From the NCBI GenBank assembly GCA_017441505.1, contig JAFRXL010000019.1, positions 1-39,878 of the forward strand: a DNA stretch of 39,878 bases. The letters run 5' to 3'. This DNA comes from Ruminococcus sp. GTDB taxonomy: Bacteria; Bacillota; Clostridia; Oscillospirales; Ruminococcaceae. Both the position numbers and the translations under genes were made by a program. The notes beneath the pieces were generated by a model, which worked only from the letters and a program-made list of their open reading frames with translations, made no database searches and was not told the DNA's origin. Positions 14,880 to 39,878 of the stretch are shown one piece after another. The first letter of the stretch is position 1. The number at the start of each line of letters is the position of its first letter.

Positions 14880-15584
14880 TTGGGATTAAAAGCCGCAATA
14901 TGTGATGACGAAAAAACTATCAGAGATGAATTGACCAAAACGCTCACAGAAATAAAAAAAGATATTTCTATTGAAGAATTTTCTTCTGGTGAAGAACTCC
15001 TCAGTTCTATTGAGCATTATGATGTCATCTTCCTTGACGTTGAAATGCAGGGAATAGACGGTATGGAAACAGCTAAACGGATAAGACGTAAAGATGTCAA
15101 GAGTTACGTTGTATTTCTTACCGGTCATATGGAATTCATACAGGATGCTTTTAAAGTAAGGGCATTCAGGTATCTGAATAAACCTATAAATGTAAAAGAC
15201 CTGAGCGAAACTATCAGTGATATTGAAGATGAGATACAGGATAATGCACAGTTCATATTTAAAAGCAATGGTGGACTTGTTTCACTGAAATATGAAGATG
15301 TTGTATGCGTAGAAGCATTTGGAGACGGAATTTACGTGTATACAAAGGATATGATCTACACAAGTCCGATGTCATTAAAGAAATGTATTGATGAACTTGG
15401 TGAAAAACAGTTCATACAAGTACATAAATCTTATGTAGTCGCCTACAGACATATTAAAGCTGTTAACAAAACATTTGTTGACATGAATTATATAAAGGAA
15501 ACTGTGCCGGTATCACGAAGGAAGTATCAGTCATTAAAGAACAGTTACTATGAATATGTCCATGAAAATGCTAAATATGTTTGA
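14880..15584 (+). CDS. LytTR-family response regulator (AgrA-like)
   Basis: DNA-binding response regulator, 234 aa. The receiver domain (about 4-120) has the acidic pair DD (9-10), the phospho-acceptor D53 in FLDVEMQG and the conserved Lys in LNKP. The LytTR DNA-binding domain (about 130-230) shows FIFKSNGGLVSLKYEDVVCVEA, FIQVHKSYVVAYRHI and VPVSRRKYQ, characteristic of AgrA, VirR and ComE. The start is TTG 14880, with AAAGGATGTGG upstream; no ATG exists before the receiver domain. The histidine kinase gene follows within 10 bp. LytTR-type repeats upstream of the PKS-NRPS operon and the peptide ORF make these its likely targets (inference). Confidence 0.93.
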   Translation: MGLKAAICDDEKTIRDELTKTLTEIKKDISIEEFSSGEELLSSIEHYDVIFLDVEMQGIDGMETAKRIRRKDVKSYVVFLTGHMEFIQDAFKVRAFRYLNKPINVKDLSETISDIEDEIQDNAQFIFKSNGGLVSLKYEDVVCVEAFGDGIYVYTKDMIYTSPMSLKKCIDELGEKQFIQVHKSYVVAYRHIKAVNKTFVDMNYIKETVPVSRRKYQSLKNSYYEYVHENAKYV

Positions 15585-15593
15585 GGTGTGTAC

Positions 15594-16893: not shown

Positions 16894-16926
16894 AGAAGCT
16901 GGCATTGATGCTGGCTTCTATTTTTT
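16894..16926 (+). terminator. Terminator of the two-component operon
   Basis: The imperfect hairpin GAAGC...GCTTC with inner CAT/ATG pairing (16894-16919) is followed by ATTTTTTAC. It starts 14 bp after the kinase stop codon. Confidence 0.75.
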
Positions 16927-16984: not shown

Positions 16985-17032
16985 TTATCTTTTGAAAAGA
17001 CGCCATAGCCAGTTGGTTAGTGAACCTATCAT
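16985..17032 (-). CDS. Putative 15-aa signalling or leader peptide
   Basis: A short ORF encodes MIGSLTNWLWRLFKR then TAA. It is supported by a full AGGAGGT ribosome site 6 bp before ATG 17032. A promoter on the same strand (TTGATT-N17-TAGTAT, 17092-17064) sits about 30 bp upstream, with a LytTR-like half-site ending 7 bp before that promoter's -35. The peptide is cationic (2 Arg, 1 Lys), Trp/Leu-rich and could form a short amphipathic helix. There is no Cys, so an AgrD-type thiolactone is excluded; a lactone or linear peptide remains possible. The frame extends upstream to an in-frame ATG 11 codons earlier and a GTG at 17173, but neither has a ribosome site. No family is recognised; translation is unproven. 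Position between the LytTR/GHKL pair and the PKS-NRPS promoter suggests a pheromone or membrane-active peptide. Confidence 0.55.
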   Translation of the reverse strand: MIGSLTNWLWRLFKR

Positions 17033-17063
17033 AGCTATACCTCCTCTTTTTATTTTCCTATTC

Positions 17064-17111
17064 ATACTATCATATAAATTAAGAAAAATCAATACTTTTC
17101 CGGCGAACGGT
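17064..17111 (-). promoter_or_regulatory. Promoter of the 15-aa peptide ORF with LytTR-like half-site
   Basis: Minus strand: ACCGTTCGCCGG (17111-17100), 7 bp, TTGATT (17092-17087), a 17-bp spacer, TAGTAT (17069-17064). The half-site matches 9 of 12 bases of the proximal site before the PKS-NRPS promoter, at the same distance from the -35. A second copy 21 bp further upstream is not recognisable. Confidence 0.55.
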
Positions 17112-17210: not shown

Positions 17211-17243
17211 ACCGCTCACCGTACATATGTTACCGTTGACCGT
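17211..17243 (+). promoter_or_regulatory. Tandem LytTR-type binding site upstream of the PKS-NRPS operon
   Basis: Direct repeats ACCGCTCACCGT (17211-17222) and ACCGTTGACCGT (17232-17243) match at 10 of 12 bases and start 21 bp apart, two helical turns. This fits the known LytTR target form: two imperfect 9-bp direct repeats with a 12-13 bp gap (here 12). The proximal repeat ends 7 bp before the -35 at 17251, a usual activator position. The likely ligand is the LytTR regulator encoded at 14880-15584 (inference). Confidence 0.72.
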
Positions 17244-17250
17244 GTGCTTG

Positions 17251-17279
17251 TTGAATTAATAAGTGCAATTTGCTATACT
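17251..17279 (+). promoter_or_regulatory. Promoter of the PKS-NRPS operon
   Basis: TTGAAT (17251-17256), a 17-bp spacer, TATACT (17274-17279). A leader of about 130 nt, A/T-rich and without a convincing hairpin or coupled uORF, separates it from the thioesterase ribosome site GGAGGG (17405-17410). Confidence 0.75.
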
Positions 17280-17416: not shown

Positions 17417-18157
17417 ATTTTTCAGGATAAAAAATTAAAAGTAGTTGTATTTCCTCATGCCGGAGGAGGTACTTTGTTCTACAGGGATTTTAAAAGTGCT
17501 TTTAAGAATTCTGACGTATCAGTCATACAGTATCCGGGACGTGAAGAGAAATATGCTCAGGTTATGCCGGATACCGTTGGTGAGCTTGCAGATGAGATAT
17601 TCAAAGAGTACAGAGATCTCTTTAAGAGCGATTATGTGATATGGGGACATAGTATGGGGAGCACAGTGGGCTATGAAGTTGCCAAGAGGTGTGAGGAGAT
17701 ACTTCATAATCCTCCGATAGTATTCTTTAGTTCAGGAGCTGCTGCACCATGCAATCCTACAACTAAAAAAGTTAAATTATCAGTAGATTCTGATAAGGAT
17801 TTTGAAGAACTTATGGATATGTACGGCGGTATAAGCGATGAGCTGAGAAAGGATAAGGATTTCCGTGATTATTTCTATCCGATAATTCGTGGGGATATGA
17901 AGCTTCTATCTGATTACAGGGATAATGAGCATATAAAGCTTCGCTGTCCGGTCAGACTTATAGAGGGCACCGAGGATGGATGTGTTATTGACAAGTGGAA
18001 GTTTTATACCGATTTTGACATCAATGTTAAATATCATAACGGCGGTCATTTTTTTATAAACGATCATAAACAGGAAATTGCTGATTATATCGAGAAAAAT
18101 GCTATGGAAGTACGAAGTAGACGAAGGGGAACTTCCGGATACCGAAAAATAACATGA
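17417..18157 (+). CDS. Type II thioesterase of the PKS-NRPS cluster
   Basis: Stand-alone alpha/beta hydrolase that removes mis-primed or stalled acyl groups from carrier-protein arms, 246 aa. It shows the family opening VVVFPHAGGG, the nucleophile elbow WGHSMGS, the acid in LIEGTEDGCV and the His in NGGHFFI. The conserved FPHAGG segment begins at about 17450, and no ATG, GTG or TTG lies upstream in frame before the stop at 17354. The only well-placed codon is ATT 17417, 6 bp after GGAGGG, so a rare AUU start is proposed. A TTG at 17474 would delete FPHAGG. It is the first gene of the operon, 34 bp before the dehydrogenase. Confidence 0.88.
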   Translation: MFQDKKLKVVVFPHAGGGTLFYRDFKSAFKNSDVSVIQYPGREEKYAQVMPDTVGELADEIFKEYRDLFKSDYVIWGHSMGSTVGYEVAKRCEEILHNPPIVFFSSGAAAPCNPTTKKVKLSVDSDKDFEELMDMYGGISDELRKDKDFRDYFYPIIRGDMKLLSDYRDNEHIKLRCPVRLIEGTEDGCVIDKWKFYTDFDINVKYHNGGHFFINDHKQEIADYIEKNAMEVRSRRRGTSGYRKIT

Positions 18158-18191
18158 GTTTATAATTTATAAACAGAGAGTGAGTTGTAAT

Positions 18192-19037
18192 ATGGGAAAT
18201 AATAAGATCATTGGCGTAGTTGGTGCCGGTGTCATGGGAAAAGGCGTTGCACAAAGATTTGCACAGTACGGTTTTAATGTTATCATACATGATATTTCCG
18301 AGAAGGCATTAAAGACTGCCAAAAGGGAAATAAGCAGAGCTGTTGCTTTTTCAGCTATGATGAACAAGAGCATCGATGTTGACGGTACTGTTTCACGCAT
18401 AAGCTTTACAAATTCCTATGAAGGATTTGAGAACGCTGATTTTGTAGTTGAAAATGTTACAGAAAACGAAGAAATAAAGCTCAGTGTTTACCAGGAACTT
18501 GAAAAAGTCTGCAAAGATGAATGCATATACATGGTAAATACTTCATGTATCCCGATAACAAAGATCGGAAGTATAACTTCCAGAAAAGAAAAAGTTATGG
18601 GGGTTCATTTTATGAATCCGGTGCCAATGAAGAATTTTGCAGAAAGCATCAGGGGCTGGTATACTTCTGAGGAGACTATTGAGTCTGTAAGGACACTCCT
18701 TGAGGCAGTCGGAATTGAGATTGAAGTGGTTAACGATAGTGCGGGATTCGTCTCAAATCGTATTTCTCATCTCTATATGAACGAGGCTATGTATCTTGTT
18801 TATGAGGGGGTTGCTGAAGCTAAGCAGATAGATAATATCTTCAAGAAGGCTTTTGCTCATAAAATGGGACCTCTTGAAACTGCTGACCTTATCGGTCTTG
18901 ATACTGTTCTTGATTCGCTTGAAGTGCTTTATCATCAGTATGAGGATTCAAAGTATCGTGCTTGTCCGCTTCTGAAAAGAATGGTCGAAGCTGGACTTCT
19001 TGGAAGAAAGTCCGGAGAAGGCTTCTATAAATATTGA
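18192..19037 (+). CDS. 3-hydroxyacyl-CoA/ACP dehydrogenase, FkbK/ZmaG-like
   Basis: NAD-dependent dehydrogenase of the 3-hydroxybutyryl-CoA dehydrogenase fold, 281 aa. The Rossmann motif GVVGAGVMGKGVAQ is at the N-terminus. The catalytic His-Glu region is HFMNPVPMK, and the C-terminal domain has VNDSAGFVSNRI and MGPLETADLIGLDTVLDSLEVL. The long DSKYRACPLLKRMVEAGLLGRKSG stretch resembles FkbK-type enzymes that oxidise glyceryl-ACP on the way to hydroxy- or methoxymalonyl-ACP. The next gene, a stand-alone ACP, supports that over a role in butyrate metabolism. FkbH- and FkbI-like partners are not in the window. ATG 18192 is chosen; GTG 18180 in frame is an alternative. Confidence 0.88.
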   Translation: MGNNKIIGVVGAGVMGKGVAQRFAQYGFNVIIHDISEKALKTAKREISRAVAFSAMMNKSIDVDGTVSRISFTNSYEGFENADFVVENVTENEEIKLSVYQELEKVCKDECIYMVNTSCIPITKIGSITSRKEKVMGVHFMNPVPMKNFAESIRGWYTSEETIESVRTLLEAVGIEIEVVNDSAGFVSNRISHLYMNEAMYLVYEGVAEAKQIDNIFKKAFAHKMGPLETADLIGLDTVLDSLEVLYHQYEDSKYRACPLLKRMVEAGLLGRKSGEGFYKY

Positions 19038-19335: not shown

Positions 19336-22300
19336 ATGAATTTGGAAAACATATTCGGAAATCTTATTCAGGGAAGCGGCAAGGGAATAACTTTTACTCA
19401 TGAGGACAGAGACGATGAATTTTGTTCTTACGATGAATTGAAAGAACATTGTGCAAAGCTTGCTGCTTATCTGAAAAAGAAAGGTGTTAAGCGTGGAGAT
19501 GAAGTGCTTGTTCACAGTGCTGATCTGAAGTACTTCATTACATCTATGTGGGCTTGTTTTTACGGCGGATATATTGCAGTACCAATAGATAACGGAAGCA
19601 ATGATACTAAAGCACAGACTATAAAATATATACTGGATTCTATGAAGGATCCATATATCATCTGCGACAGCATTTCCAAGGAATACTACTCAGGCGAATT
19701 TGCTGACAGAGCTTTTGATATTACCGGCATTGACCTTGAAACTGATAAGTTTGAATGTGAACCTCCGGTAAGCATGAAGCCTGAGGATGTGATTTATATT
19801 CTGCATTCATCAGGCTCTACAGGCACACCTAAGGGAATAGCGATAAATTTAAAAAATGTGATAGTTAATGCACAAAGTGTCATACGTAAATATAATGTAG
19901 ATGATAAGGACGTATTTGTTGCCTGGCAGCCGCTGACACATTGCTTTGGTTTACTTGTATTTCATTTTGTGCCGTTTATTGCTAATGCTGATCAGATTCT
20001 TATTCCAACGGCTGATTTTATGAGGGATCCTTTAGTATGCTTGAGAAAGGTAGATATGTATCGAGGAACAATGCTTGGCATGATACCTTTTGCATTAAAG
20101 AAATTCATAAATTACTGTAAACAAAGTAAAGAGACTTTTCATTGTGATCTGTCATCATTACGAGGTATCTTCTTAGGCGGAGAACAGATCAATCTGGAAA
20201 TATGTGAAGAGTTTTTAGATGTGATCGAAAAATATAATTCGGGAAGATGTGTTTTCATACCTACGTATGGTCTTACAGAAGCAACAGCTATTATAAGTTT
20301 ACATGATAATCGGGAATTTATGAAAAAATATCATATTGTCAGTGGAAGCATTGAAATAGGAAATAAAATAGATCCGTTAAATGATATTAATAGTTCTTGT
20401 TATTATATTGGAAATGGAATGCCTTTAGATTGTATGAAAGCAAAGATCGTTGATGAAAAAAATAATGATCTTGATGAAAATACAATTGGAAGATTAGTTG
20501 TTTCGGGTGAGAATATCTCACCTGGATCATATTATAAAGGCAAAGTAACTCCTTTGAAAGAATATGAAAACGGCTGGCTCGATACCGGAGATCTTGCTTT
20601 TATAGCTGATGGTAAAATAGTTATAGTTGGTAGGAATAAAGAGATCCTTGTAATGAATGGTATGAAATTTGCTGTAAGTGATATTGAAAATATTGTGATC
20701 GATACAGTAAAGGATGTTTTCTCTAAGGTGGCTGTATGTAATGGATTCTGTAAAATAAAGGCATCTGAGCAGGTGTATGTTTTTATCGAAACTGATATTT
20801 CACTTGATAATATCAAAGAGAGAAAGATCTTCTTAAAATATCGTGATATTATAAGAAAAAATGTATTTGAAGAAACAGGTCTTTTAATAGAAAATGTATT
20901 TCCTATCGTAAAGATACCTGTGACAGGTAATGGAAAAACAAAACGTTTAGAGCTTTCAAATCAAATTAATCTGGGTGTGTGGGATGAGTGTGAAGATAAG
21001 ATCAAAGATCCAATGTACGCAGAAAAAAATGCAGGAGTTGATAAAATGACTATTGAAAAAGTAAGAGATATTATAAAAGAAATCATTTCCGGTTCAACCA
21101 AACTTCTGGTTGATGATATTGATATACAGTTCCACGATTATGGTATCGTTTCCGCAGAAATACCTCGTGTTGTAAAAGAGATCAATGAAAAATTCGGAAC
21201 TGATATTGAAGTATCAGGTATATTTAATTATCCTAATATCAGAAAGCTTGCAGATTTTGTATATGAAAATATGAACAGCAAAACAGCTGAAAAGCCTGTT
21301 GTTGTGGAGGAAGATAATTCCGATAAGAGCAATAAGCTTGCAATAGTTGGTATGAGCTGCCGTTATCCGGGCGGAGCAAACAGCATAGATGAATTCTGGA
21401 AAGTACTTGAAGAGGGGATTGACGGAATTATAGATGTTCCTGAGGACAGATGGGAGCTGGAACGCTATTATGACAGTGATAAGACAGCACCCGGAAAGAT
21501 GTATTGCCGTACAGGCGGCTTCCTTCATACTGATATATATGGATTTGACACAAAGCTCTTTAATATGTCTCCTAAGGAAGCTCTTGCAGTTGCTCCGGAA
21601 CACAAAATACTTCTTGAACTCACTCTTGAAGCATATGAAAACGGCAATCTGAATATCACCGATTACAATGGTACAAATACCGGCGTTTTCATAGGTATAT
21701 CCACAAATGAATATACAGCTACACAGTTATATTCAGGTGATTATAAAAAGATAGATGCATATGCACTGACTGGTACTTGTTTTAGTACTTGCTGCGGAAG
21801 AATTTCCTATACGTTCGGTTTTGAAGGTCCTTGTCTTGCCATAGATACAGCTTGTTCATCATCACTGACAGCTCTTCAGGTAGCTTGTCAGTCGCTTAAA
21901 GGCAGACAGACTGATACAGCCGTTGTAGGTGGTATAAACCTTATGCTCACTCCTGCACCTAATATCGGATTTTCTAAGCTTCAGGCAACATCTCCGGAAG
22001 GACACTGTAAGTCATTTGACGATTCTGCTGATGGTTACGGCAGAAGTGAAGGTGCTGGTGTTATCATTATCAAGCGTCTTGAGGATGCTGAAAGAGATAA
22101 TGATAAGATATTTGGTGTTATCCGTGCTGCTGCTATCAATCAGGACGGAAAGAGCAACGGACTTACAGCTCCTAATGGTGCTGCTCAGGAAAAGATCATC
22201 AAAAAAGCACTTAAAGAAGCTGGTATTGATGCTGGCATGGTCAGCTACGTTGAAACTCATGGTACAGGTACAAAGCTTGGTGATCCTATTGAAGCTGGAG

Positions 22301-25300
22301 CTCTCACAAAAACTTACGGTGAGGCAAGAAGAAATAAGTCACCTTTGATGATAGGTTCTGCAAAGTCAAATATCGGACATACAGAAGCAGGTTCCGGTAT
22401 GGCTGCTATGATAAAGGTGCTCATGTCAATGGATCATGATGAGATACCAGGAAACCTCAATTTCAATACTCCAAATACATTTATTGATTGGAAGAACAAT
22501 AATCTTTCTGTAGTAGCAAAGAATACAGAGTGGAAGTCTGACGGCGGTCACCGTTATGCTGGTATAAGCGGATTCGGATTCGGCGGTTCAAACGCTCATA
22601 TAATCGTTGAAGACTATTTCGACAAAACCCAGAGAGTATCAGATACCGGAGAAAAGGGCTGCGATCTTATGCTCAAACTTTCAGCTAAGTCAGAAGTTTC
22701 ATTGAAGCAGTATGCAGAGAAATATGTTGAATTCCTTTCAAAGTGTCCGGATGAGGATGTACCTTCTATACTCAAACTTGCAAATACAAGCAGAGTTGAC
22801 TATGAGAGTCGTCTTGTTGTTACAGGTTCTGATAAGGAGACTATCATTGCTCGTTTGAAAAGCTACATCAGCGGACAGGCTTCCGATGGTGTATATCATA
22901 ACGGAAAAGACGGTATATCCTATGTTAAGGAACGTACACCTGTATATATGTTCACAGGTCAGGGCTCACAGTATGTAGGCATGGGACGTGAACTCTATGA
23001 GAAGTCAGCAGTATTTGCTGAGAACATGGATATCTGTGCTAAGCTATTCAAGCCATATCTGCTCTGTTCTATAACTGATATGCTTTATGGTGAAAAGGCT
23101 TCTGATGAAAAGGTAAACAAGACCTGCTATTCACAGCCGCTCATCTTTGCATTTGAGTACTCACTCAGCAAGTATCTTGAAGCTTGTGGAGTTAAGCCGG
23201 CAGCAGTTATGGGACATAGTATCGGTGAATACGCAGCAGCTGTAGTTTCCGGAGTTATGTCTCTTGAAGATGCTGTTATGGCAGTTGCTATAAGAGGTCG
23301 TCTTATGGATTCTGCTCCTGGTCACGGAAGTATGGGTACATTGTTCGCATCAGAGGAAACAGTAAACGAGCTTATCGCACCTTATGCTGAAAAGGTATCT
23401 ATCGCCACAAGAAATGCTGAATCGAACTTCGTTATTTCCGGTGAGGCAGATGCTGTAGAGGCTATCTTACAGGAAGCGGAGAACAAGAAGATCGAAACAA
23501 GACGACTTGTAGTATCTCATGGATTCCATTCACAGCTCATGTCACCTATACTTGGCGAGTTTGAAGATATTATCAGTTCTGTCAAGATAAATGAGCCTGA
23601 GATCACTTTCGTATCTGCACTCTATGGTCGACCTGTAACATCAGCTGAGGAACTTTCACATGATTACTGGGTACGTCATATCCGTGAAAAGGTCGATTTC
23701 TACAGTGCAGTAAAGAGCATTGAGGATAATAAGAACTATATCTTCACTGAGGTAGGCTCACATACTGTTCTTTCTTCACTTTGCAAGATGATACTTTCTG
23801 AAAAGTCAGAGATATGTCCTGCACTCAGACGCAAGTTCCGGGATAATGCTCAGATAGCTGCAATGCTCGGAATACTCTATGTTTCAGGTATAAATATAGA
23901 CTGGAACAAGATAAGCTTTGACGGTATAAAGAATATTCCTAATCATACATTCCTTCCTACATATCCTTACGATAAGCAGCATATCTGTGCTGAACTTACA
24001 CTTGAGTTTGATAATACTGCTAAAACTGGAATCGATGGAGATCCGCTACTTGGACAGCATATTGAATCTCCTCTTCTTGATGGTGCAAACATATATCAGC
24101 GTCTTTTCGATGAACAAGAGCCTAAGTTCATGCCTGAGCACGTTATATTCGATAAGCCTATATCTCCGGCAGCAGGTCATATGTCTATGCTCATCTCAAT
24201 GATGAAGAAGAACAATAAAAATGCTAAGAGATGTATAATAAGTGCAGCTGAGTTCCGTGCTCCTCTTGCAATTGATACTGACGAAACAAGAGTTGTTCAG
24301 TTCTGTCAGGCTAAGCCTGATGCATCCGGAATCAGTGATGTATCTATTGTCAGCCATTCTGAGAATTCCGAGTGGCTTACACATATGGTCGGCAAAGCTG
24401 AGGTATCAGATGAATATGCAGTTTCTGAGGAAGAGTTTGATGTAAGAGAAGCGGAAAGAAAAGAGTTCAGACTTGATATTGAAGATACCGTTTATGGACT
24501 TATGCGGAGTACAGGTTTCAATCTTGGTGATACGTTCAGAAGAATTGAAAAATATATAGTGAACGGAGATTATGTTATTAGCTTCCTCAGAGCTCCGGAA
24601 AATCTTCCGGATGCTGATATATATACATTATATCCCGGAGTGCTGGATTCTATATTCCAAACAGGTCTTTGTGCAGTTTATGATGAAATAAACGAAAGAA
24701 ACAAAGAGAATAATGTAAATGATAAGAGTACAGTTATACCATATTACATTGAAAGTATCGAATTTAATTATGTATCGTTTAAAAATCTGTGGTGTACCGG
24801 AATTTCCAAGATAAAAGATGATATATTATATGGTTCTGCAAATGTATATAATGAAAATGGTGAGCTTGTTTTAAAAATGAAGGGATTTATGGGCAAGATC
24901 ACAAATCGTTCAACACTTCTTCGTGAAATGTCCGGAAATAAGGATAAAATGTTCTATCAGGTCAACTGGGAGAATGTTAAGCCTGAGATAAGCAGTAACG
25001 TCAATACTTTGCCTGTATGTGTTTTAGCTTCAAATGATGAGGATGCGAAGAGATTTGCAGATAAGTTTGCAGAGAAATGTGCAAAAACAGCATACGCTGT
25101 TTACAACAGCGACGGCAATGTTGATTCCTGTATAGGAGCATTCAAATCACTTGCTTCCGGAGCAGCTGATGACAAGTGCAAGATCATGTTTATATGCGGT
25201 GCTGAAAAGGCAGATGATACTTATCTTTATGTAAGAAATGCTTTTGAGATAGTAAAGGCAATTCAGGCAGACTATGAACTGAGTGGAAAAGCTGAACTTC

Positions 25301-26736
25301 ATTTCCTTACTCTCAACGCAAACAGTGTTGAAGAGAATGAGGGAGCAGATCCTGCTGATTCACTGGTATGGGGCTTTGTAAAGAGTGCTCGTGTAGAGCA
25401 TGGAGAGATCTTCGGCGGTATAGTTGATACCGATGAAAAGAACTTCAATGAACTTTCAGATATTCTTATCAACGCACTTACTGACAAGAGCGACGAAGAA
25501 ATAAGCATACGCAATGACAAGATGTATATTTCCAGACTTGCTAAGGCTGAAAAGACTTCCAAGCTCACATCTGAGCCGATAAAGTTCAGCGATGATGCAT
25601 CATACCTTATCACCGGCGGTACAGGAATGCTTGGTCAGGTATATACAGAGCAGCTTCTTGGTCATGGAGCTAAGAACATCGTTCTGGTTTGCAGAAAGCA
25701 GCCTTCAGATAAGGTAATGGAAAATCTTAACAGAATGAAAGCTGAATATGATGCTGACATTACGATTGAGTATTGTGACCTGAATGAACTTTCAAATGCG
25801 GAAGAGCTTATTTCACGTCTGGCTTCAAATGGCAAGACTATAAAGGGTATCGTACACTGTGCAGGTGTTCTTCGTGATACAACAATAAGCAGTATGACTT
25901 GGGAGAACTTCCAGTTTGTACTTGAACCAAAGACTAAGGGTATCCGCAATATCGTAAATGCAGCAGGTAAGGATAAGCTTGATTTTGTTATAATGCTTTC
26001 ATCTGTAGCTTCTATATTCGGAAACTATGGACAGAGCAACTATTCAGCTGCCAATAATTTCCTTAATGGTTATGCTGCTCAGCTCAATGCAGAAGGAGTA
26101 AATGCATATCCGGTATGCTGGGGACCATGGCAAGGCGGCGGTATGGCTTCCGGTAATCAGAGTATTGATGAAAATCTGAGCAGAATGGGTATAGAATCAT
26201 TCTCACCTGAGATCGGTGGAGAAATAATAGGTTCACTTTTAGATAAGCCAAGAAAACACGTTGTTGCTGCTGATGTAAATTGGAAGCAGTATGCAGAAAA
26301 TATTGGAAAGACTCAGGCAGAACATTTCATTGTCGAGCTTATTGATAAATCTGATGCTGATGATGCATTATCTGATTCAGATAACGGTAAGTTCGTTGAA
26401 GAACTTAAGGCGTTGTCAGAGGATGAGAGAAAAGAAGTTCTTCTTGAAAAATTACAGAAGATATGCAGTGATATAATGGGATTCCAGGGAGATCAGAAAC
26501 TGGATCCGTATTCATCTATCAGTGAACAAGGTGCAGATTCATTAATGACTTTCACAATGAGATCTAACATAAATAAATTACTTGGAACAGAGTTAACAGT
26601 ATCAGTATTCTTCAACTATCCGTCACTGGATCAGCTGACAGACCACTTGCTGGAAGATGTCCTTGAATTTGATGAAGAAGAGCAGGATGAGGATATAGAC
26701 GATCTGCTTGAATCAATAAATAAATTAACTGAATAA
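19336..26736 (+). CDS. Modular polyketide synthase, AL-ACP-KS-AT-DH-KR-ACP
   Basis: Loading plus first extension module, 2466 aa. The acyl-AMP ligase (1 to about 560; [25 protein letters not shown]) activates a starter, probably a fatty acid. ACP1 has S606 in the odd context GIVSAE. KS (about 667-1090) is intact: DTACSSS with C840, VETHGTGT and KSNIGH. AT (about 1200-1485) has S1295 in [10 protein letters not shown] and a specificity motif HGFH, not the usual HAFH. DH (about 1565-1855) keeps H1602 and D1771, but the Gly of HxxxGxxxxP is Asp. KR (about 1870-2300) has TGGTGMLG, catalytic Ser-Tyr (Y2236) and an LRD in place of LDD, fitting a B-type reductase. ACP2 has S2402 in GADSLM. The starter would be extended once to an enoyl or hydroxyacyl chain. 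AAGGAG sets ATG 19336. Confidence 0.95.
21052..21285 (+). other. Loading ACP domain of the PKS
   Basis: Carrier between the acyl ligase and the KS. The arm-bearing Ser is in DYGIVSAEI, so the Asp of the usual DSL is Val and the Leu after Ser is Ala. The Ser itself and the helix III pattern ([17 protein letters not shown]) are kept, so loading is still plausible. Confidence 0.85.
24037..24900 (+). other. Dehydratase domain of the PKS with altered motif
   Basis: The hotdog dehydratase keeps H1602 ([14 protein letters not shown]) and D1771 ([10 protein letters not shown]), spaced 169 residues as expected. The third conserved position of HxxxGxxxxP carries Asp instead of Gly. Activity is uncertain, so module 1 could give an enoyl or a beta-hydroxy product. 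Confidence 0.8.
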
Positions 26737-26755: not shown

Positions 26756-29700
26756 ATGAGTGAGGCAATCTCAAAGAATAAAGAAGCAGTATATAAAGAA
26801 GCTTTGCAGAAAGCAAAAAATAAAATAGAACAATTACAGGCTGAGAATGCACAGCTTAGTTCTGAAAATAAGAAATGTGAAATAGCTGTAACAGGTTATT
26901 CATGCAGATTTCCAGCCGGAGCAAATAGTCCGGAAAAATACTGGGAACGTCTTTCAGAAGGATTTGACGCAGTAAGTGAGATAAAGCGTTTTGATATTGA
27001 TGATCTATATGATCTAAATGCGGATGCTCCTGGAAAGATAGCAACGAGATATGCCTCATTTCTGGACATTAATGTAAAAGAATTTGATAATGTTCATTTT
27101 AATATTTCAGCAATAGAGGCGAAATCACTTGATCCTCAGTACAGACTTCTTATGGAAGTGTGCTGGGAGGCTCTTCTTGATGCTGGAGAAGATCCTGAAA
27201 AATTAAAAAATAGTAAAACAGGTATATTCATCGGAATAGATTCTTCGGATTATACAAGAGCGGTATTTGGTTCGGGGGATCCTGAGAATATCGGTTCTTA
27301 CACACTTATGGGAATATCTCAGCATACAGCAGCAGGACGTATAAGTTATTATTACGACTGGAAAGGACCGGCAATTGCTTGTAATACTGCCTGTTCGTCT
27401 TCGCTGTCAGCCCTTAATTGTGCTATAAGCAGCTTGAAAAACGATCAATGCGATATGGCGGTAGTTGGTGGGGTAAATCTCATATTAGACTCTGATACCT
27501 TCGTTGGACTTTCACAGTTGAATTCTCTTTCTTACGATGGCAGATGCAAAACATTTGATGCATCAGCAGATGGATTCGGTCGTGGAGAAGGATGCGGAGC
27601 GATCATACTCAAGAGACTTGACGAAGCTGAAAGACAGGGAAGAAATATACGTGCGATAGTAAAGGGAATATATGCTGGTCAGGACGGAAAGTCCAATGGC
27701 TTCTATGCTCCTAACGGAAAAGCAGAGCAGAGAGTAGTAGAGAGTGCAATAGAAAATGCAAAGGTTTCTGTAGATGATATTGATTATGTAGAAACTCACG
27801 GAACAGGAACAGTTCTGGGTGATCTTATCGAATCACAGGCTCTATGCGGAGCTTTCAAAAAGAAGAAAAATAAACTGAAGATAGGTTCAGTCAAATCAAA
27901 TATGGGTCATCTTGAGGCAGCAGCCGGAATGGCAAGTATTATCAAGGTGTTGCTTTCTATGGAGCATCATATGCTTCCACCAAGCATCAACATAAAACAG
28001 CTTAATCCTGAGATAAACTGGAATAAGCTTGAAGTTGTGCAGTCACTTACAGAGTGGAAAAAAGAAGACGGCTCACCTTTGATCGCTGGTATTAGTTCCT
28101 TTGGTATCAGCGGTGCATTGGTGCACACCATATTTGAGTCATACGAAAAGGAAGAAAATACAGAAGCCCTTCCTGAAATACCATGTTCACTTCTTACGGT
28201 TTCAGCGAAAACTGAAAAACAGCTTCGTGCATCTGTAGAAGCTGCAAAGGATTACATTGAAGGAAATCCTGATAAATTCGATGACATCATTTATTCAATG
28301 CAGAAATGCAGAAGTACTCTGCCTATAAAGTATGCAGTATGCGGTAAGGACAGAGAATCACTCTGTGCAGAGATACAGGCATCACTTGACAGCGAAGATG
28401 TATATGATACATATACAAAAGAGCCGTCTGCAAAGAAGCATAAGATAGCTTTCCTGTTCACTGGTCAGGGAGCTATTTATAAAGATATTGCTATTGAACT
28501 TTATAACTGCTCACCAATCTACCGCAAATACTTTGACCTTTGCAATGAGCTTTTCAGCAAAACACTTTCAGTATCTATCCATGATGCAGTATTTGGAGAA
28601 AATGAAAACTGGGTAAAGAGAGCTGTATACTCACAGGCAGTAACATTCAGCGTGGAATATTCACTTTATCAGTACTGGACATCACTTGGAATAGAGCCCG
28701 ATATAATGCTTGGACATAGCATAGGTGAATATGCAGCGGCTTGTGCATCAGGAGTTATGGCACTTGAAGATGCGGTGCAGATGATCTCATGGCGTGGACA
28801 GATGATGGATTCTGTAGAACCTACCGGAAAGATGATGGGAATCCTATCAGACCGCAGTTCAGTAGAAGCAGCAATAGCTGAAAGCGGAACTCAGAATGCC
28901 GGAGTTGCAGCCTGCAATGCGGATAATAATGTTACCCTTGCAGGTCTTGCAGATGCTGTAGATGAGGTAGTTAATTGTCTCCAGAAGAAAAAACGAGTTT
29001 TTGTAAACGACCTGAATATCCCATATCCTTTCCATACAAAGCTGATGTCACATTATGAAGCTGATTATTCAGCAAAAATGGAGAAGATAAATTTCAGTAA
29101 ACCGGATAAAACTATCGTATCTACAGTAACAGCGGATAACGATGGAAGTGTATTTGCCGACAGTCATTACTGGGCAGAACATCTGTCAAAAACAGTCCGT
29201 TTTGCAGAAGCAATACGTAAAGTCAAAGAGCTTGGAGCAGATATATACATAGAAATTGGTGGAGCAGCAACACTTACCGGACTTTCTGGACAGTGTCTCG
29301 GAATAAATAATGATATGCTTTTCCTGCCGTCACTTAGAAAGGGCAAGAGTGCATATGCACAGCTCTCAGAAACTATTCAGCAGCTTTATCTGAATGGTAT
29401 CGAAATATCTTACGATGCACTTTATGCCGGACTTAAACACTCATATACTGATCTTTATCCATATCAGTTCCAGAGGAAAGAATTCTGGATAGAAAATGAT
29501 AAAGGCAGTGATAGGAAACTGCCCAAAACAATAGTTGAAAGTGAGAAAGTTGTTATGCCAAAGGAACAGAAAAATGATGATAAAGTAAACAGAGTAAAGG
29601 AAAATCTGCTTAACGAAATAAAGAGAGTAACGGGAAATGATATTGAAGACATCAGAACAGATCAGGATATGTTTTCACTTGGTCTTGATTCACTAATGCT

Positions 29701-32700
29701 TCTTTCTTTAGGGAAGCAAATAGAGAGCAGCTTTGGGGTAGAGATCCCAATGGATACATTCTTTACAGAACTCAATACAATAGATGCACTTGCTGAGTAT
29801 CTGGCAGAAAACCAGATGGAAATGCCGGAAGAAGATACGGCAGAAACTGATCCTGTACAGTCAATGAGCGAGGCAGATACAGAAGCGGAAATACCAGTAA
29901 ATTCTGAAGCTGTACCTATTCAGTCAACTGGTTATAATGTTCCAGCAGCAAATATCCCGGTCGGAAATGAAGATGATATATCTTCACTTTTCAACAGACA
30001 GCTTTCAATTATTCAGGAGCAGCTTGCGGTAATGAAGATGCTTGGAGGAAAGATGCCTGCTGGACAGACAGTTCAGACAGCTGTACAGGTTGTTCCGGAA
30101 GTTCAGAAAAAAGCAGAGGCACCCAAAAAAGAAGTAAAGAAAATGGATACTTCCTACTATAAGCCATACCATAAAAATGACTATAAGGCAGCAGACATAA
30201 GCATTACCGGAAGCCGGGAGGAATATGTCAAGGAAGTAATGAGCAAATATGTTGCTAAAATGCCTTCATCAAAGAAGTATCTTGAAAAATATAGATTTGT
30301 AAATGCCAATGCAAGACATAATGCCGGATTCAAAATGGAATTCAAGGATATGTTGTTCCAGGTCGTTGCAGAGAGCGGACACGGATCACATATAAAAGAC
30401 TTGGACGGAAACGACATAATCGATATAACAATGGGATTCGGAGTAAATATGTTTGGCTATGCACCTGAGTTTGTAACAGATGCATTGACAGAAGAAATGA
30501 AGCAAGGATTCCCACTTGGTGCACTTGGAAGAAAAACAGGTCAGGTAGCAGAGCTTATTTCCGAGCTTACAGGAAATGAAAGAGTATTCTTCTGTAATTC
30601 AGGAACAGAAGCAGATATGTTTGTTGTAAGAATAGCAAGAGCAGCAACAGGAAAGAAGAAAATAGTATACTTCGGTGGAGCGTATCATGGAACATCCGAC
30701 GGAGTACTGGGTCTGCCATTTTATGAAAAAGACGGATCGATATCTGCATTTCCGATGGTGCCCGGTATTACTGAAGGAGCTGTATCAGACCTTGTAGTTT
30801 TGAATTATAATACTCCAAGTGCTCTTGAATACATAAAAGACCACTCTGATGAGATAGCAGGTGTGCTTGTAGAACCAGTACAGAGCAGAAGACCTGATAT
30901 ACAGCCAAGAGAGTTCCTTCATGAGCTAAGAAAGATAACTGAAGAGAATAATGTAGCTCTTATTTTTGATGAAGTTATCACTGGTTTCAGAATATGTGCA
31001 GGAGGAGCACAGGAATATTTTGGAGTTAAAGCAGACCTCACAACTTATGGTAAAGTTCTTGGTGGAGGAATGCCTATAGGTGTAGTTGCAGGCTCTGCAA
31101 GATTTATGAACAGCGTTGACGGAGGAGTATGGAATTTCGGAGATGATTCAGCACCAGAGTACGAAAATCAGAGAACACTTATCACAGGTACATTCTGTCA
31201 TCATCCTCTTACAATAGCAGCGGCATATGCAACATTGTCACATATAAAAGCAGAAAAGGATACTCTCTATCCTGAAGTGAATAAAAAAGCAGACTATATG
31301 GTAAATACACTGAATAAATTCTTTGAAGAAGAGAAAGTGCCGTTCCATATGGTAAATTTCGGAACACTTTTCCGCTTTATGATGGGCAAAGAGTATGAAA
31401 TATTCTATTACTCATTACTTGAAAAAGGAATATTTGTATGGGAAGGAAGAAACTGCTTTATCTCTACAGAGCATACATATGATGATATTGAGCGTATTAT
31501 TTCAGCAGTAAAAGAAACAGTACATGAAATGAAGGAAGCAGGTTTTTTTCCTGAATCTTCTGCACTGAAAACAGACGCAGGTGTAGAAGATAAAAATACG
31601 TTAGCAGATGGAGTAATAACCAAGCCTGCATCATTGATCCAGCAGCGTCTGTATATAGATACAAAATTAAATGAATCAGATCCTTATGATGTTGTATCAG
31701 CTTTTTCGCTCACTAAGAAGATAGATGAAAAAAAGCTGGAGAATATAGTTAATAAAATAATTCAGCGGCATGAAGTACTTAGAACGTCATTTGCAGAAGA
31801 AAATGGCGAAATCGTAATGAAAATCCATTCGTCATGCAGAATAAAGATAAAGCATATGGAATCCTCAGAAGATCATGTTAAGCTGATACAGGATTCTCTG
31901 ACAAAGTTTGATCTTTCCAAAGCACCGCTTGTAGAAGTAATAATCGTAAAACATGAAAATGAAGATGTTCTCATATTCCATTTTCATCATATAATAGCAG
32001 ATGGAATGTCAATGAGCAATTTCAATCAGGAATTTATGGCATTGTATGAGAATAAGAAAATTCCGGAGCTTAAGAAACAGTATTCAGGATATGTAGATTA
32101 TGAAAACAAGCTGATGACAGATAAATGGATAAGCGACAGGAGAGAATTCTGGTTAAATGAACTTGAAGACTGTGTTACAGGAATACCGCTGCCGTATGAC
32201 TGCACCCCTGATAAAGCGACGATGGCAGGTTCGACATATGTAGAATATATCGATAAGGATATCACTGGTAAATTGAAGAAAGCAGCCATGGAGCAGGGGG
32301 TATCACTGTTTATGATCCTTTTGTCAGTTATGGATGTAGTTCTGCATAAAATATCAGGCGAGAAGAATTTTGTGATCTCAACACCTGTTACAACAAGATT
32401 TGCCGGCGGCTTTGAAGACAATATAGGTATGTTCACGAATACAATGGCTTTAGGCTGTCATATCGGGCCAGGTGAAAGTTTTGCTAAGTTGTTGAAAGAT
32501 GTAAAGAAGATAAGTCTTGCTTCATATAGCCGGTCAGATTATCCGTATAATATGCTTATAAATGATTTAGATGCAAGAGATGAAAAAGCAATAAATGTGA
32601 ATTTTGTTTATGAGAATACAGACGGAAGAGATCCAAATCACGGAAGTGACTTTAATTTAAAATACATACCATTTGTTAAGCCTGTTCAGGAAAATGAGTT

Positions 32701-35700
32701 GAGCATAGAATTCCTTGAGGGAAATGGTGAAATAGAAGTACAAATTGGATATCAGACAGATTTGTTTAAAGAAGAAACAATAGCAAGGATATTCGGATAT
32801 ATTAAGAATATCGTTAATATTATAACTGAGAATCAGGATGTACGTATTACTGATATTGATATATTGTCTGATGAAGAAAAACAGCTCATCCTGAACAACT
32901 TCAACGCAACAGAAAAAGAGTATCCAAGAGACAAGACAGTAGCAGAGCTGTTTGAAGAGCAAGTAAAGAAGACACCAGACAATATTGCACTTGTATTCGA
33001 GGATAAGAAACTCACATATTCCGAGCTTAATTCAAGAGCAAATAGTTTGGCACATAAACTGAGAGAGCTTGGAGTAAAGCCGGATGATTTCGTAGCGATC
33101 ATAGCAGACAGAAGTCTTGAAATGATTTGCGGAATCTATGGAATAATCAAATCAGGCGGAGCATATGTGCCAATAGATCCGACATATCCAGAGGATAGAA
33201 TAGCGTTCATGCTTGAGGATTGTCAGCCAAAGGCAGTGCTTAAGTATACAACAGAGAGTATAACGATAAATAATGAAATACCGGTAATAGACCTCAGCGA
33301 AAGCGAGGTCTGGGAAGGTGCGTCTGACGATCTGGAAACTGTGAATAAGCCAGAGGATGCGATATACTGTATTTATACATCAGGTACAACAGGAAAGCCT
33401 AAGGGAGTAATCAACAGAAACTATGGTCTTATAAACAGGATCATGTGGATGAACAGCAGATATCCAATAGGAACAGGAGATACGATACTCCAGAAAACAA
33501 CCTTTACATTTGATGTATCAGTTTGGGAAATCATCTGGTGGAGTATAGTAGGAGCAAGAGCAGCTTTACTTATCCCTGGAGGAGAAAAAGAACCAGATAC
33601 GATATGTGATACAATTGAGAAGTACGAAGTAACAACAATGCACTTTGTACCATCAATGCTTTCTATGTTTGAGGAGTATGTGCAGGAAACAGTTGGAGCA
33701 GCAGAAAAGCTTAAGAGTTTAAAAAATGTATTTGCAAGCGGAGAGGCACTCAAAAAAGTTCATGTAGATAATTTTTATAAGATAGCTGAAAGTGCAGGAC
33801 TTGGAATGAAGCTTGCAAACTTCTACGGACCAACAGAAGCAAGTATCGACGTAACATACTATGACTGTGTAGTTGAAGACAGAAATAGTGTTCCGATAGG
33901 AAAGCCGATAGACAATACACAGATATATATTGTAAATGGAAAGAATCTGTGTGGAATTGGTATCCCGGGAGAGTTATGCATAGCTGGAGATGGACTTGCA
34001 AGAGGCTATCTTAACAGACCAGAGCTCACAGCCGAGAAGTTTGCAGATAATCTCTTTGGAGAAGGAAAGATGTATCATTCCGGAGACCTTGCAAGATGGC
34101 TTTCTGATGGAAATATCGAGTATCTTGGAAGAATTGATGATCAGATCAAGATCAGAGGACAGAGACTCGAATTAGGTGAGATCGATGCAAAGATTCGTGA
34201 AATAGAAAATATCAAAGATTGTGCAGTAATAGCAAAAGCAGACAGCACAGGAGATAAGGCAATATATGCATACTATACAAGTGACAGTGAAGTGAGTGTA
34301 TCCGAGATAAAGGATAGGCTCAGCGAAAGCCTGCCTGAATATATGATGCCAGCATATATGATGCAGATTGAAGCAATACCAGTAACAAGAAACGGAAAGC
34401 TTGATAAGAGAGCACTGCCTGAGATAGAGGCAAGAGCAACAAAGGAATATATTGCTCCAAGGAACGAGATCGAAGAGAAGATATGCAATATATTCAGCGA
34501 GATACTGAATGTAGAACAGGTCGGAGTAAAGGACAGTTTCTTCGAGCTTGGAGGACACTCATTGAGAGCAACAAGACTTGTAAACAGAATAGAAGCTGAA
34601 ACAGGTACAAGAATTGCCCTTAAAGATGTATTCAGTCATCCTACAGTAGAGCAGCTTGCGGTACTTGCAGGAGCAGAGAGTGAAGAATATATTCCGATAC
34701 CAAAGTCAGAGGAGAAGGAGTATTATCCGATGTCCTCACCTCAGAAGAGAACATATCTTATCCAGCAGATGCAGCCAGAGTCAGTAACATATAATATGCC
34801 AGCAAATCTGAAGCTTACAGGAGAAGTGCGTCCGGATGATCTCAGAGCAGCATTGCAGGAAATGACAGAAAGACATGAGATACTGAGAACAGAGTTCCTG
34901 ATGATAGACGGAGATCCTGTACAGAAGATACTTGACCATGTAGAAGCAGACTTTGAGTATGTGGTAAGTAGTGAATCAGATGAAAAGCTGATGAAGGACT
35001 TTCTGAAGCCGTTTGACCTTGCGAGCGGAAAACTTGTAAGAGTGAAGCTTGTAAACAAGGGCAAATATTACCTTATGATGCTGGATATGCATCATATTGT
35101 AGGCGACGGAATGAGCATGAATACATTTACAACAGAGCTTATAGCGTTGTATAACAGAGAAAAACTCGAACCACTTACACATCAGTTCAAGGACTACAGT
35201 GAGTGGATGAGAAGCCGTGATCTGAGCGGACAGGCAGAATATTGGAAGAGTCAGTTCGATGATGAGATACCTGTGCTTGATATGCCAACAGACTTCCCAA
35301 GACCGCAGGAACAGAGTTATGCAGGAACAATGTTCTTTGAAACCATTAATGAAGATATAAGCAGAAATATTAAGGAGCTTGTAAAGAAAACAGGTGCGAC
35401 AGAGTACATGGTATTTCTTGCAGCAGTAATGGTTACATTAAGTAAGTACAGCAGACAGGAAGATATTGTAATTGGCTCACCTATCAGTGGACGTACTCAC
35501 AGAGATACTGAGAATATGCTCGGAATGTTCGTAAACACACTTGCAATGCGAGGCAAGCCGGAGAAGAACAAGACATTCAGTCAGTTCCTTGAAGAAATCA
35601 AGAATACTTGCTTAAGGGCATATGAGAATCAGGAATATCCGTTTGAAGAACTCGTTGAAGCAGTGGATGTACAGAGAGATATGTCAAGAAGTCCGCTGTT

Positions 35701-39103: not shown

Positions 39104-39123
39104 TCGGAAAGGGCAAATATATT

Positions 39124-39878
39124 ATGGTAATTGTTAATGATAAGATCCAGAACATTTATCCGTTGACTCCTCTTCAGAATGGAATGTTATTTCATAATTT
39201 ATATGAAAAGGAGTCAAGTGCGTATTTAATACAACTTGAAATAAAAATAGAAAAAAATATAGAGATCGGATCAATTAAAAAGGCATTAAAGCTTTTATCT
39301 GACAGATATTCGGTTTTACGTACTTTTTTTGTACATGAAAAAGTTAAGGAACCATGTCAGGTAGTATTAAAAGAGCGTGAATTAGAATTTGAATATGTTG
39401 ATCTGTCAGATCGCATTGAAACTGATAAAAATAATACAGTAAAAGAAATACTTTCTTTAGATGTGAAAAGAGGATTTGATCTTCAAAATGATCCTTTGCT
39501 CAGATTAAAGTGCATAAAGCTTTCTGATAAAGAAAATATATTTATATTCACTAATCACCATATTATTATGGATGGATGGTGTAATACAATACTGTTTAAA
39601 GAGCTTTTTAATTATTATGAGAGACTTAATAAAGGAGAGTCTTATGATACTATCCATGATGAGATAATTCAAAATAATGAGATAGGATATGATTATGGTG
39701 ATTATCTGAAATGGCTTGGTAAGCAGCCTAAAGGAGAAGCCGAAAAATACTGGGCAGAAGAGCTTGAAGGATATGATAATGAATGTGACATAAAGCCAAT
39801 AGTCAAGCCTGAAGCTACAGAAGACCAGATAAGAGAATTTTCATTTGAATTGGATCATGATACGACAGAGAAGCTCAA
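39124..39878 (+). CDS. Nonribosomal peptide synthetase, N-terminal condensation domain (partial)
   Basis: A reading frame from ATG 39124 stays open to the right edge (251 codons seen). It starts with IQNIYPLTPLQNGMLFH, the C1 motif typical of DCL condensation domains, and contains NHHIIMDGWC, an intact HHxxxDG active site with the Trp common in this subtype. That suits a donor ending in the D-residue made by the upstream E domain. GGAAAGGG (39107-39114) lies 20 bp after the previous stop codon, so it is the next gene of the operon. Adenylation specificity and chain release lie outside the window. Confidence 0.92.
   Translation, partial: MVIVNDKIQNIYPLTPLQNGMLFHNLYEKESSAYLIQLEIKIEKNIEIGSIKKALKLLSDRYSVLRTFFVHEKVKEPCQVVLKERELEFEYVDLSDRIETDKNNTVKEILSLDVKRGFDLQNDPLLRLKCIKLSDKENIFIFTNHHIIMDGWCNTILFKELFNYYERLNKGESYDTIHDEIIQNNEIGYDYGDYLKWLGKQPKGEAEKYWAEELEGYDNECDIKPIVKPEATEDQIREFSFELDHDTTEKL

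What the first reader, a model, noticed from the sequence alone, without database searches (positions are those of the whole stretch)
16985..17111. Hidden 15-aa peptide gene with a LytTR half-site at the same position as in the PKS-NRPS promoter
Minus-strand ORF MIGSLTNWLWRLFKR has a perfect AGGAGGT site and a plausible promoter. That promoter has ACCGTTCGCCGG exactly 7 bp before its -35, matching the divergent operon promoter in both sequence (9/12) and distance. It lies between an AgrC/AgrA-like pair and its probable target. This suggests an undescribed autoinducing or membrane-active peptide co-regulated with the lipopeptide. It would be missed by any normal gene caller.
Basis: partly seen in the sequence, partly recalled or inferred. 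Interest (0 to 1): 0.85.

Follow-up and report, generated by a model that had tools for sequence, protein, structure and literature searches.

The report
Hidden signal-peptide gene beside its receptor
A 15-amino-acid tryptophan-rich peptide gene, too short for ordinary gene finders, lies next to a membrane sensor in a Ruminococcus genome and recurs in related gut bacteria; it looks like an undescribed kind of bacterial cell-to-cell signal that may control antibiotic production.

Summary
The ORF MIGSLTNWLWRLFKR (17032-16985, minus) has AGGAGG 7 nt before ATG and a LytTR half-site 7 bp before the -35. A promoter model built only from relatives ranks this promoter and the PKS-NRPS promoter first and second among the matches it reports in the window's genome. 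Of 16 closely related AgrC/ComD-like kinases found in 125 genus genomes, 15 have a LytTR-type promoter beside them and a short ORF with a Trp in its last ten residues. Between the window and G079 the block NWLWRLF is kept while all five non-Trp codons differ synonymously. Peptide similarity tracks the kinase's membrane sensor domain after controlling for kinase domain and response regulator (partial r 0.376, p 0.0005), as expected for ligand and receptor. Several LytTR promoters in relatives precede bacteriocin-like precursors. Best reading: a leaderless aromatic autoinducer of the adjacent HPK10-type kinase, with positive feedback, controlling the PKS-NRPS. Gene and promoter are well supported; expression, secretion and sensing are inferred. 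The locus has no AgrB and the peptide no leader. New variant of a known kind.

The parts
16985..17032 (-). 15-aa peptide ORF MIGSLTNWLWRLFKR (ATG to TAA)
   Evidence: relatives; synonymous-only divergence of NWLWRLF against G079
17040..17045 (-). Shine-Dalgarno AGGAGG, 7 nt before ATG
17064..17092 (-). peptide promoter: -35 TTGATT 17092-17087, 17-bp spacer, -10 TAGTAT 17069-17064
   Evidence: read; R1 match 17119-17068; not listed by the generic scan
17100..17111 (-). LytTR half-site ACCGTTCGCCGG, 7 bp before the -35; the half-site 21 bp upstream is degenerate
17211..17243 (+). full LytTR tandem (ACCGCTCACCGT / ACCGTTGACCGT, 21-bp period) of the PKS-NRPS promoter
17251..17279 (+). PKS-NRPS promoter TTGAAT-17-TATACT
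14880..15584 (+). response regulator, receiver plus LytTR domain; one of two LytTR matches in the genome
15588..16880 (+). AgrC/ComD-like (HPK10-type) GHKL sensor kinase, probable receptor; hydrophobic N-terminal half
   Evidence: HATPase_c_5; hydropathy
16894..16919 (+). terminator-like hairpin after the kinase gene, between it and the convergent peptide gene
17417..18157 (+). thioesterase, first gene of the divergent operon (GGAGG at 17405-17409 suggests an ATT start at 17417; the listed ORF starts at TTG 17474)
   Evidence: start codon inferred
18180..19037 (+). 3-hydroxyacyl-CoA dehydrogenase-like gene of the operon
19336..26736 (+). PKS subunit (AMP-ligase, KS, AT, DH, KR, carrier domains), probable target
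26756..39103 (+). PKS-NRPS subunit (KS, AT, carrier, class-III aminotransferase, C and A domains), probable target
39100..39876 (+). start of a further NRPS gene (condensation domain), cut by the contig end

Best explanation
The ORF encodes a leaderless aromatic signal peptide. The response regulator next door (14880-15584) binds the CCGTTnACC-type repeats and switches on the peptide promoter and the PKS-NRPS promoter. The peptide leaves the cell by an unknown route, without AgrB or a double-glycine leader, and is sensed by the membrane domain of the adjacent HPK10-type kinase, which phosphorylates the regulator. This makes a positive feedback loop that turns on synthesis of a lipopeptide-type product at high density. 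Supported by sequence: the ORF is kept as protein; the promoter is LytTR-type and recurs with this kinase subfamily; peptides co-vary with the sensor domain; several LytTR promoters in relatives precede antimicrobial-type genes. Inferred: transcription, translation, export, binding, phosphorylation. My probabilities: real LytTR-controlled peptide gene about 0.93; autoinducer of this kinase about 0.7.
For: Conservation: 16 kinases at >=329.6 bits in 125 genus genomes, the next at 156.3; 15 of 16 have a LytTR-type promoter and short ORF. Coding constraint: synonymous-only differences in window/G079 NWLWRLF (5 codons), L160/L180 CIINLFGWLWD (6), L071/L072 IDWLWWLF (3), L084/L088 whole ORF (3). 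Promoter: R1 ranks both window promoters first and second among its reported matches in the genome; 13 of 125 genus genomes have an R1 site at E<=1e-5, 12 of them among the 14 genomes with an in-group kinase and 1 among the other 111. Ten of those 12 gave a site to R1, so only the rarity elsewhere, G000 and G076 are independent, and G076's sites at that cut-off are not at its kinase. Co-variation: partial Mantel sensor-peptide given kinase and RR 0.376, p 0.0005, n 26. Place varies (same strand after the kinase, convergent in the window, divergent from or upstream of the regulator) while a LytTR-type promoter is kept. Other LytTR promoters precede GG-leader precursors, a C39 ABC transporter and a thiopeptide-like precursor. 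6 of 14 in-group genomes have no AgrB match (two of the six are only 53% and 73% complete).
Against: No transcript, peptide or binding data. The window promoter has one good half-site only. No export or processing gene was recognised beside the peptide, and none was sought genome-wide. G010 (1 of 16) has no site or peptide; its kinase is flanked by what I read as transposase genes. G113's site is weak (R1 15.7 bits, E 0.019). Three of the 15 in-group peptides fail a strict aromatic rule. Several relatives have LytTR sites that drive longer genes, not peptides (L083, L092, L096, L098, L099, L102, L103). In the next 40 kinases only 6 have site plus aromatic ORF by one rule. The faster-evolving sensor could track phylogeny better than the kinase domain, which would mimic co-evolution.
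Confidence: 0.7

Rival explanations
1. The peptide is a secreted membrane-active effector (phenol-soluble-modulin-like or leaderless antimicrobial) that is merely a target of the two-component system.
For: The window peptide is strongly amphipathic (hydrophobic moment 0.66, 99th percentile of its own shuffles, net charge +3) and 8 of 26 listed peptides, 7 of them in-group, are at or above the 94th percentile. Some LytTR promoters in relatives precede antimicrobial-type precursors.
Against: Amphipathicity is not shared by all: 7 of 26 (L072, L074, L077, L084, L088, L089, L104) are at or below the 13th percentile. One relative ORF is only MWDWLFG. Peptides track the sensor domain, which an effector need not do. 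Streptococcal pheromones can be amphipathic too (recalled).
Confidence: 0.14
2. The peptide is a small membrane regulator that binds its own cell's kinase from the membrane (feedback connector), not an extracellular signal.
For: Hydrophobic, no secretion leader, no exporter recognised beside it, tied to the sensor domain by co-variation.
Against: 7-16 residues, some with charged tails, are short for a membrane span. Placement and LytTR control resemble pheromone loci.
Confidence: 0.12
3. Chance ORF; the RNA (untranslated, or antisense to the kinase 3' end) or nothing is functional.
For: Very short; the generic promoter scan does not list the promoter and shows no terminator-like site on the minus strand there.
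Against: Synonymous-only divergence in close pairs, 15 of 16 conservation, SD-like sequence of 4 nt or more before each listed in-group ORF, chance estimates.
Confidence: 0.04

Closest known systems
ComCDE / Blp systems of streptococci (HPK10 kinase, LytTR regulator, CSP-type pheromone)
   Same: GHKL membrane kinase next to a LytTR regulator; 9-bp direct repeats 12 bp apart shortly before the -35, the LytTR geometry (PMC6193735, passages); short peptide under the same control; some targets are bacteriocin-like. Mature S. mutans CSP SGSLSTFFRLFNRSFTQA (PMC4873836, passages) resembles GSLTNWLWRLFKR by eye (not tested).
   Different: No leader and no double-glycine site: the ORF is about the size of a mature pheromone.
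agr (AgrBDCA)
   Same: AgrC-like kinase, AgrA-like regulator, LytTR sites with divergent promoters; in three relatives a ~600-nt region divergent from the peptide recalls RNAIII (comparison recalled, not tested).
   Different: No AgrB at the locus (the genome's one AgrB match is on C33, beside the other LytTR pair); no Cys and no AgrD-like layout in the window peptide.
Rgg-SHP / ComRS (RRNPP) peptides
   Same: Short aromatic peptides; some SHP and XIP contain Trp pairs (recalled).
   Different: Receptor there is a cytosolic regulator; here a membrane kinase plus LytTR regulator are adjacent.
Phenol-soluble modulins
   Same: Leaderless, short, under AgrA-type control (recalled); this peptide is amphipathic.
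   Different: Amphipathicity not consistent across the family; peptides co-vary with the kinase sensor.

Membership tests
HPK10-LytTR peptide quorum sensing (general kind) | GHKL kinase with multi-span membrane sensor adjacent to a LytTR regulator | tested here: met
   HATPase_c_5 in 15588-16880 and Response_reg+LytTR in 14880-15584; hydrophobic stretches within residues 12-206
HPK10-LytTR peptide quorum sensing (general kind) | peptide gene under LytTR direct-repeat control | tested here: met
   R1 match 36.1 bits, by sequence only and with only one good half-site in the window
HPK10-LytTR peptide quorum sensing (general kind) | peptide is secreted and activates the kinase | not testable with these tools
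   only indirect: sensor-peptide co-variation
agr (AgrBDCA) | AgrB gene at the locus | tested here: not met
   the one AgrB match in G000 is at C33, not on the window contig; 6 of 14 in-group genomes have no match at E<=1e-3
agr (AgrBDCA) | AgrD precursor with Cys/Ser ring residue between leader and tail | tested here: not met
   MIGSLTNWLWRLFKR: 15 aa, no Cys, no room for leader plus tail
ComCDE / Blp | double-glycine leader on the pheromone precursor | tested here: not met
   no leader, no GG in the ORF
ComCDE / Blp | C39-type ABC exporter in the locus | tested here: inconclusive
   none among the 18 window ORFs scanned (43 ORFs of >=90 aa are listed); the contig ends at 39878
RRNPP (Rgg-SHP, ComRS) | adjacent cytosolic RRNPP receptor gene | tested here: not met
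   neighbours are a LytTR regulator and GHKL kinase on one side and the PKS-NRPS operon on the other
phenol-soluble modulins | amphipathic helix | tested here: inconclusive
   window peptide 99th percentile of shuffles; 8 of 26 peptides at or above the 94th, 7 of 26 at or below the 13th

The most novel reading that the evidence does not exclude
A widespread, undescribed class of quorum-sensing signals: ribosomally made, leaderless aromatic peptides of 7 to about 35 residues with a WL(F/W)-type core, made without AgrB or double-glycine machinery, each the cognate ligand of an adjacent HPK10-type kinase in Ruminococcus and Lachnospiraceae, controlling bacteriocins, thiopeptide-like RiPPs or a PKS-NRPS, and in one clade an RNAIII-like regulatory RNA.
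Probability: 0.55. Interest if true: 0.92.

Novelty: new variant of a known kind. Interest (0 to 1): 0.85.

Why it matters
Peptide signalling in dominant gut and rumen Clostridia is poorly known; a review passage (PMC10838665) calls the evidence in ruminal bacteria limited and names agrA/agrB genes. Signals of 7-20 residues lie below usual gene-caller limits (general knowledge), so whole circuits stay invisible. If right, each signal is encoded in full, so many can be synthesised directly and used to induce silent antibiotic clusters, including the PKS-NRPS here and bacteriocin-like genes of cultured R. flavefaciens. It also poses the question of how such peptides leave the cell.

Tried and rejected
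Agr with hidden AgrD: rejected, no AgrB at the locus. Genome-wide count of the bare 12-mer: uninformative (71 matches at <=2 mismatches against 50 for the reversed control). Leader 17-mer of the Lachnospiraceae-type loci: 0 of 391 class genomes, so breadth there rests on loci. Phage DNA search: 27 short weak places in 25 records, none covering 80% of the query, best E 0.3 among the 5 rows shown. NCBIfam on six peptides of 22-32 aa: no match at E<=1; Pfam was not run on peptides. Rfam on L071, L069, L203, L209 at E<=1: only a T-box in L203 and a sub-threshold match outside the RNA in L069; the window has only a 5S rRNA at 22-138. RNA fold of the peptide transcript: z -3.14, but it contains the reverse complement of the kinase terminator hairpin, so not used. 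Mantel runs: void (coding slip left the sensor columns empty); on 14 of 26 kinases (filter too strict) gave partial 0.250, p 0.0197 (in-group 11: 0.329, p 0.0140); searches use all 26. The control (127 of 4095 windows) was contaminated by loci of other kinases; redone on own-genome loci. The second kinase system of the genome (C33) showed no CCGTT tandem or aromatic ORF by eye. Kinase structure was not obtained.

Not in print: ten full-text searches of the open-access PMC library listed no description; I judged by titles and abstract starts. No preprints and few subscription papers are held. Papers opened by term search only, passages seen: PMC6193735, PMC13289728, PMC4873836, PMC10838665; PMC8895600 returned no passage.

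Full report
WHAT IS THERE. The window is contig C50 of a 2.24-Mb, 79.55%-complete genome (G000). Named relatives found with the kinase profile are Ruminococcus (7 of 80 loci labelled R. flavefaciens), Lachnospiraceae and other Clostridia. A receiver-LytTR regulator (14880-15584) and a GHKL kinase (15588-16880) lie left of the intergenic region; a thioesterase, a 3-hydroxyacyl-CoA dehydrogenase and PKS/NRPS genes lie right of it. On the minus strand is the 15-codon ORF 17032-16985, tail to tail with the kinase, with AGGAGG 7 nt before ATG. In addition, the PKS side has a full tandem with a 21-bp period, while the peptide side has one good half-site and a degenerate one 21 bp upstream.

RELATIVES. 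A kinase profile over 125 genus genomes gave 16 kinases at >=329.6 bits, then a gap to 156.3. Scans of their flanks for the tandem, a -35 at fixed distance and a 17-bp spacer, completed by eye, gave a promoter plus short ORF in 15 of 16: G000 MIGSLTNWLWRLFKR; G023 MNGPKAVIDWLWWLFH; G080:C56 MKGLVDWFWWIFG; G086 MKSLVDWFWWIFG; G069 MQKMILIDWLWWLFQ; G135 MFLCNVVACANFDWVWEWLFGNGSGN; G079 MLTKLNWLWRLFF; G031:C25 MNLYGLITSVFAASESVDFWSEIIKWLTGNGG (GTG start); G031:C40 MFSTTIATLGVCATAACGAVTQGCQGIFAIFSRWF; G011 MISVCIINFFAWLFG; G075 MALCIINLFGWLWD; G080:C47 MVVCIINLFGWLWD (or one residue longer); G018 MANNSVKNTAYIGIFDWLFGKN; G113 MNVTLLMFSGFFRWLFG; G076 MEIGYASSMGNFNFIRYTWQYLFG. All 15 have a Trp in the last ten residues. 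Not all sites are equally good: G031:C40 and G113 have ACCGAAAA-type repeats and G076 has CCGTTTAAT/CCGGAAACC; these three, with G113 weakest (R1 29.2, 15.7 and 26.6 bits), were accepted by eye. The miss is G010, whose kinase is flanked by what I read as transposase genes and whose best reported R1 match is 19.0 bits. A fixed strict aromatic rule passes 12 of the 15 (fails G031:C25, G018, G031:C40); applied to 29 arbitrary loci of the window's genome it gives 1 hit in 18,420 intergenic strand-bases, and in 40 loci of other kinases 10 hits in 46,878, six of them behind a LytTR-like tandem of another type.

BEYOND THE IN-GROUP. In the 80 named loci, which partly repeat the in-group genomes, 52 tandem-plus-promoter sites lie in 38 of 80 loci (five shuffled controls: 3, 4, 2, 0, 0 sites). 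The first ORF is short in 28 of 52 (200 shuffles of the downstream DNA: mean 15.5, maximum 24), with 22.2% aromatic residues against 9.9% and 7.8% Trp against 1.7%. Examples outside the in-group: MFGMLCHWDFFRFLRRYYG, MILCDFDIFWFWKRRR (two loci), MRCHYRWLWWFFGR, MNILLWSGFWGWFFG. Loci L117-L119, L128, L132, L133, L139, L145, L146 have 13-15-aa ORFs with TTG or GTG starts behind a shared leader; clear 21-bp tandems were seen in some (L117, L146) and not in others. Among the next 40 genus kinases (ranks 17-56), 25 of 40 have some site and 6 of 40 site plus aromatic ORF; ten shuffles gave 2-12 and 0-1. One more, G031:C23, has only MWDWLFG, seven residues, behind its tandem, and L258 has MGDFLEWLLAALL; both fall outside my rule.

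CODING CONSTRAINT. Fifteen pairs were compared in blocks chosen because the peptides align. Synonymous only: window/G079 NWLWRLF 5 codons (sensor domains 24% identical); G075/G080:C47 CIINLFGWLWD 6 (two nonsynonymous codons outside the block); L071/L072 IDWLWWLF 3; L084/L088 whole ORF 3; L069/L070 1 (one nonsynonymous outside). No change: L118/L128 in the block. With protein changes (synonymous/nonsynonymous codons): L071/L069 0/4, G011/G075 4/3, G011/G080:C47 3/3, L085/L094 4/6, L118/L117 1/6, L078/L079 0/2, L108/L120 1/6, window/L071 1/2, window/L072 1/2. So the core is held in close pairs and turns over between groups, as specificity determinants do. The choice of blocks favours matching residues, so these are not dN/dS estimates.

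PROMOTER. R1 was built from 19 relatives' promoters without the window. In G000 its two best reported matches are the two window promoters. Across 125 genus genomes at E<=1e-5, with stricter filters that lose weak matches, 13 have a match: 12 of the 14 genomes with an in-group kinase (not G010, G113) and 1 of the other 111 (G147). Ten of those 12 contributed a site to R1; the independent part is the rarity elsewhere plus G000 and G076, and G076's matches at that cut-off lie on C78, not at its kinase. In G147 the site lies about 200 bp before a GG-leader-like precursor, with a 1,016-aa ORF after it. The geometry fits LytTR sites: repeats mostly 12 bp apart and 4-11 bp, often 10, before the -35 (PMC6193735 passages); here 12 and 9 counted from the 9-mers.

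LIGAND OR EFFECTOR. For 26 kinase-peptide pairs, peptide similarity correlates with sensor-domain identity (0.471), kinase-domain identity (0.338) and regulator identity (0.241). Partial correlations: sensor given kinase and regulator 0.376 (p 0.0005, 2,000 permutations); kinase given the others 0.149 (p 0.08); regulator -0.105 (p 0.83). In-group only (15): sensor given kinase 0.445, p 0.0007; without three close twins (23): 0.392, p 0.0003. This is what a ligand-receptor pair predicts. It is not proof: the sensor evolves faster (mean identity 0.218 against 0.404) and may hold more phylogenetic signal. For the effector rival, 8 of 26 peptides (7 of 15 in-group) are at or above the 94th percentile of hydrophobic moment among their own shuffles; against it, 7 of 26 are at or below the 13th.

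TARGETS. Of 11 R1 sites looked at, three in R. flavefaciens XPD3002 (G031) precede GG-leader-like precursors, one a CAAX-protease-like gene, one a secreted hydrolase-like gene and one a small Gly-rich hydrophobic ORF; in G069:C49 MFWDIFKKIFG is followed by a Cys/Ser-rich thiopeptide-like precursor. G031:C23:863 and G069:C41 have no gene close behind; G000:C46 and G023:C53 precede ORFs of other kinds. A further G031 site precedes a C39-type ABC transporter, and in G018 a site precedes a small Cys/Gly-rich ORF. These names are my reading; no family search was run on them, and not all R1 matches were fetched. XPD3002 is reported to have six class II lanthipeptide core peptides (PMC13289728 passage). 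So a PKS-NRPS target fits, without being proved by, a pattern of antimicrobial-type targets.

NO AgrB, NO LEADER. Of 14 in-group genomes, 8 match AgrB at E<=1e-3, 5 over the cut-off, 6 not at all (G023, G011, G069, G135, G113, G076; G135 and G113 are 73% and 53% complete). G000's AgrB is at C33, beside its other LytTR pair. The export route is unknown; I made no genome-wide search for exporters.

VERDICT. A conserved, LytTR-type-controlled peptide gene, most likely the autoinducer of the adjacent kinase and co-inducer of the PKS-NRPS. It works like ComCDE or agr but meets the leader or AgrB criteria of neither. I found no published description in ten open-access searches.

Noticed in passing
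L071:3250-3885 (also L069:3562-4215, L070:3563-4215; G023, G080, G086): A ~600-nt region with its own LytTR promoter, divergent from the peptide gene, ending in a strong terminator-like hairpin. Found in 3 of 125 genus genomes (the query genome G023 and two at 90% DNA identity). Predicted ends pair in a long helix; C-rich stretches (TTTCCCACTCC, CACCCCCAG) recall anti-SD loops of RNAIII (recalled). No Rfam family. Only 1 of 183 predicted pairs shows a double change, so the fold is not proved.
   Followed up: partly
L203 and L212 (G076:C78:7779-8016): Two LytTR-type promoters in a row, each before a short stretch sharing CCATGCTCATCTCAAACA and followed by a hairpin: possible sRNA pair.
   Followed up: no
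L276 (G031:C23), site at + 5542: Seven-residue ORF MWDWLFG with an SD-like sequence directly behind a LytTR-like tandem, in cultured R. flavefaciens XPD3002.
   Followed up: partly
L241 (G069:C49:21390-21459): 11-aa ORF MFWDIFKKIFG and, next, a thiopeptide-like Cys/Ser-rich precursor behind one LytTR-type promoter.
   Followed up: no
L117-L119, L128, L132, L133, L139, L145, L146: Lachnospiraceae-type loci with a shared leader (GTCCGGACAATACA..GTATATACGGAAAGGA in most) before 13-15-aa ORFs that start with TTG or GTG; the exact 17-mer was not found in 391 class genomes sampled.
   Followed up: partly
window 17405-17419: The thioesterase gene of the PKS-NRPS operon probably starts at ATT 17417, 7 nt after GGAGG, an unusual start codon.
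   Followed up: no
window 19336-39878: Domain content AMP-ligase, KS, AT, DH, KR, then KS, AT, class-III aminotransferase, C and A domains resembles iturin/mycosubtilin-type beta-amino lipopeptide synthetases (recalled), here in a Ruminococcus-like genome.
   Followed up: no
L009 (L264), L013, L015 (L246), L022, L166 (L249), L251: Another kinase group has repeats of the type CCRTTCACTCC (21-bp period) before ORFs such as MGDFLDWLFGGRR, MWNWLFNYIFRKG, MPWDEIWDRIWGKGR.
   Followed up: partly
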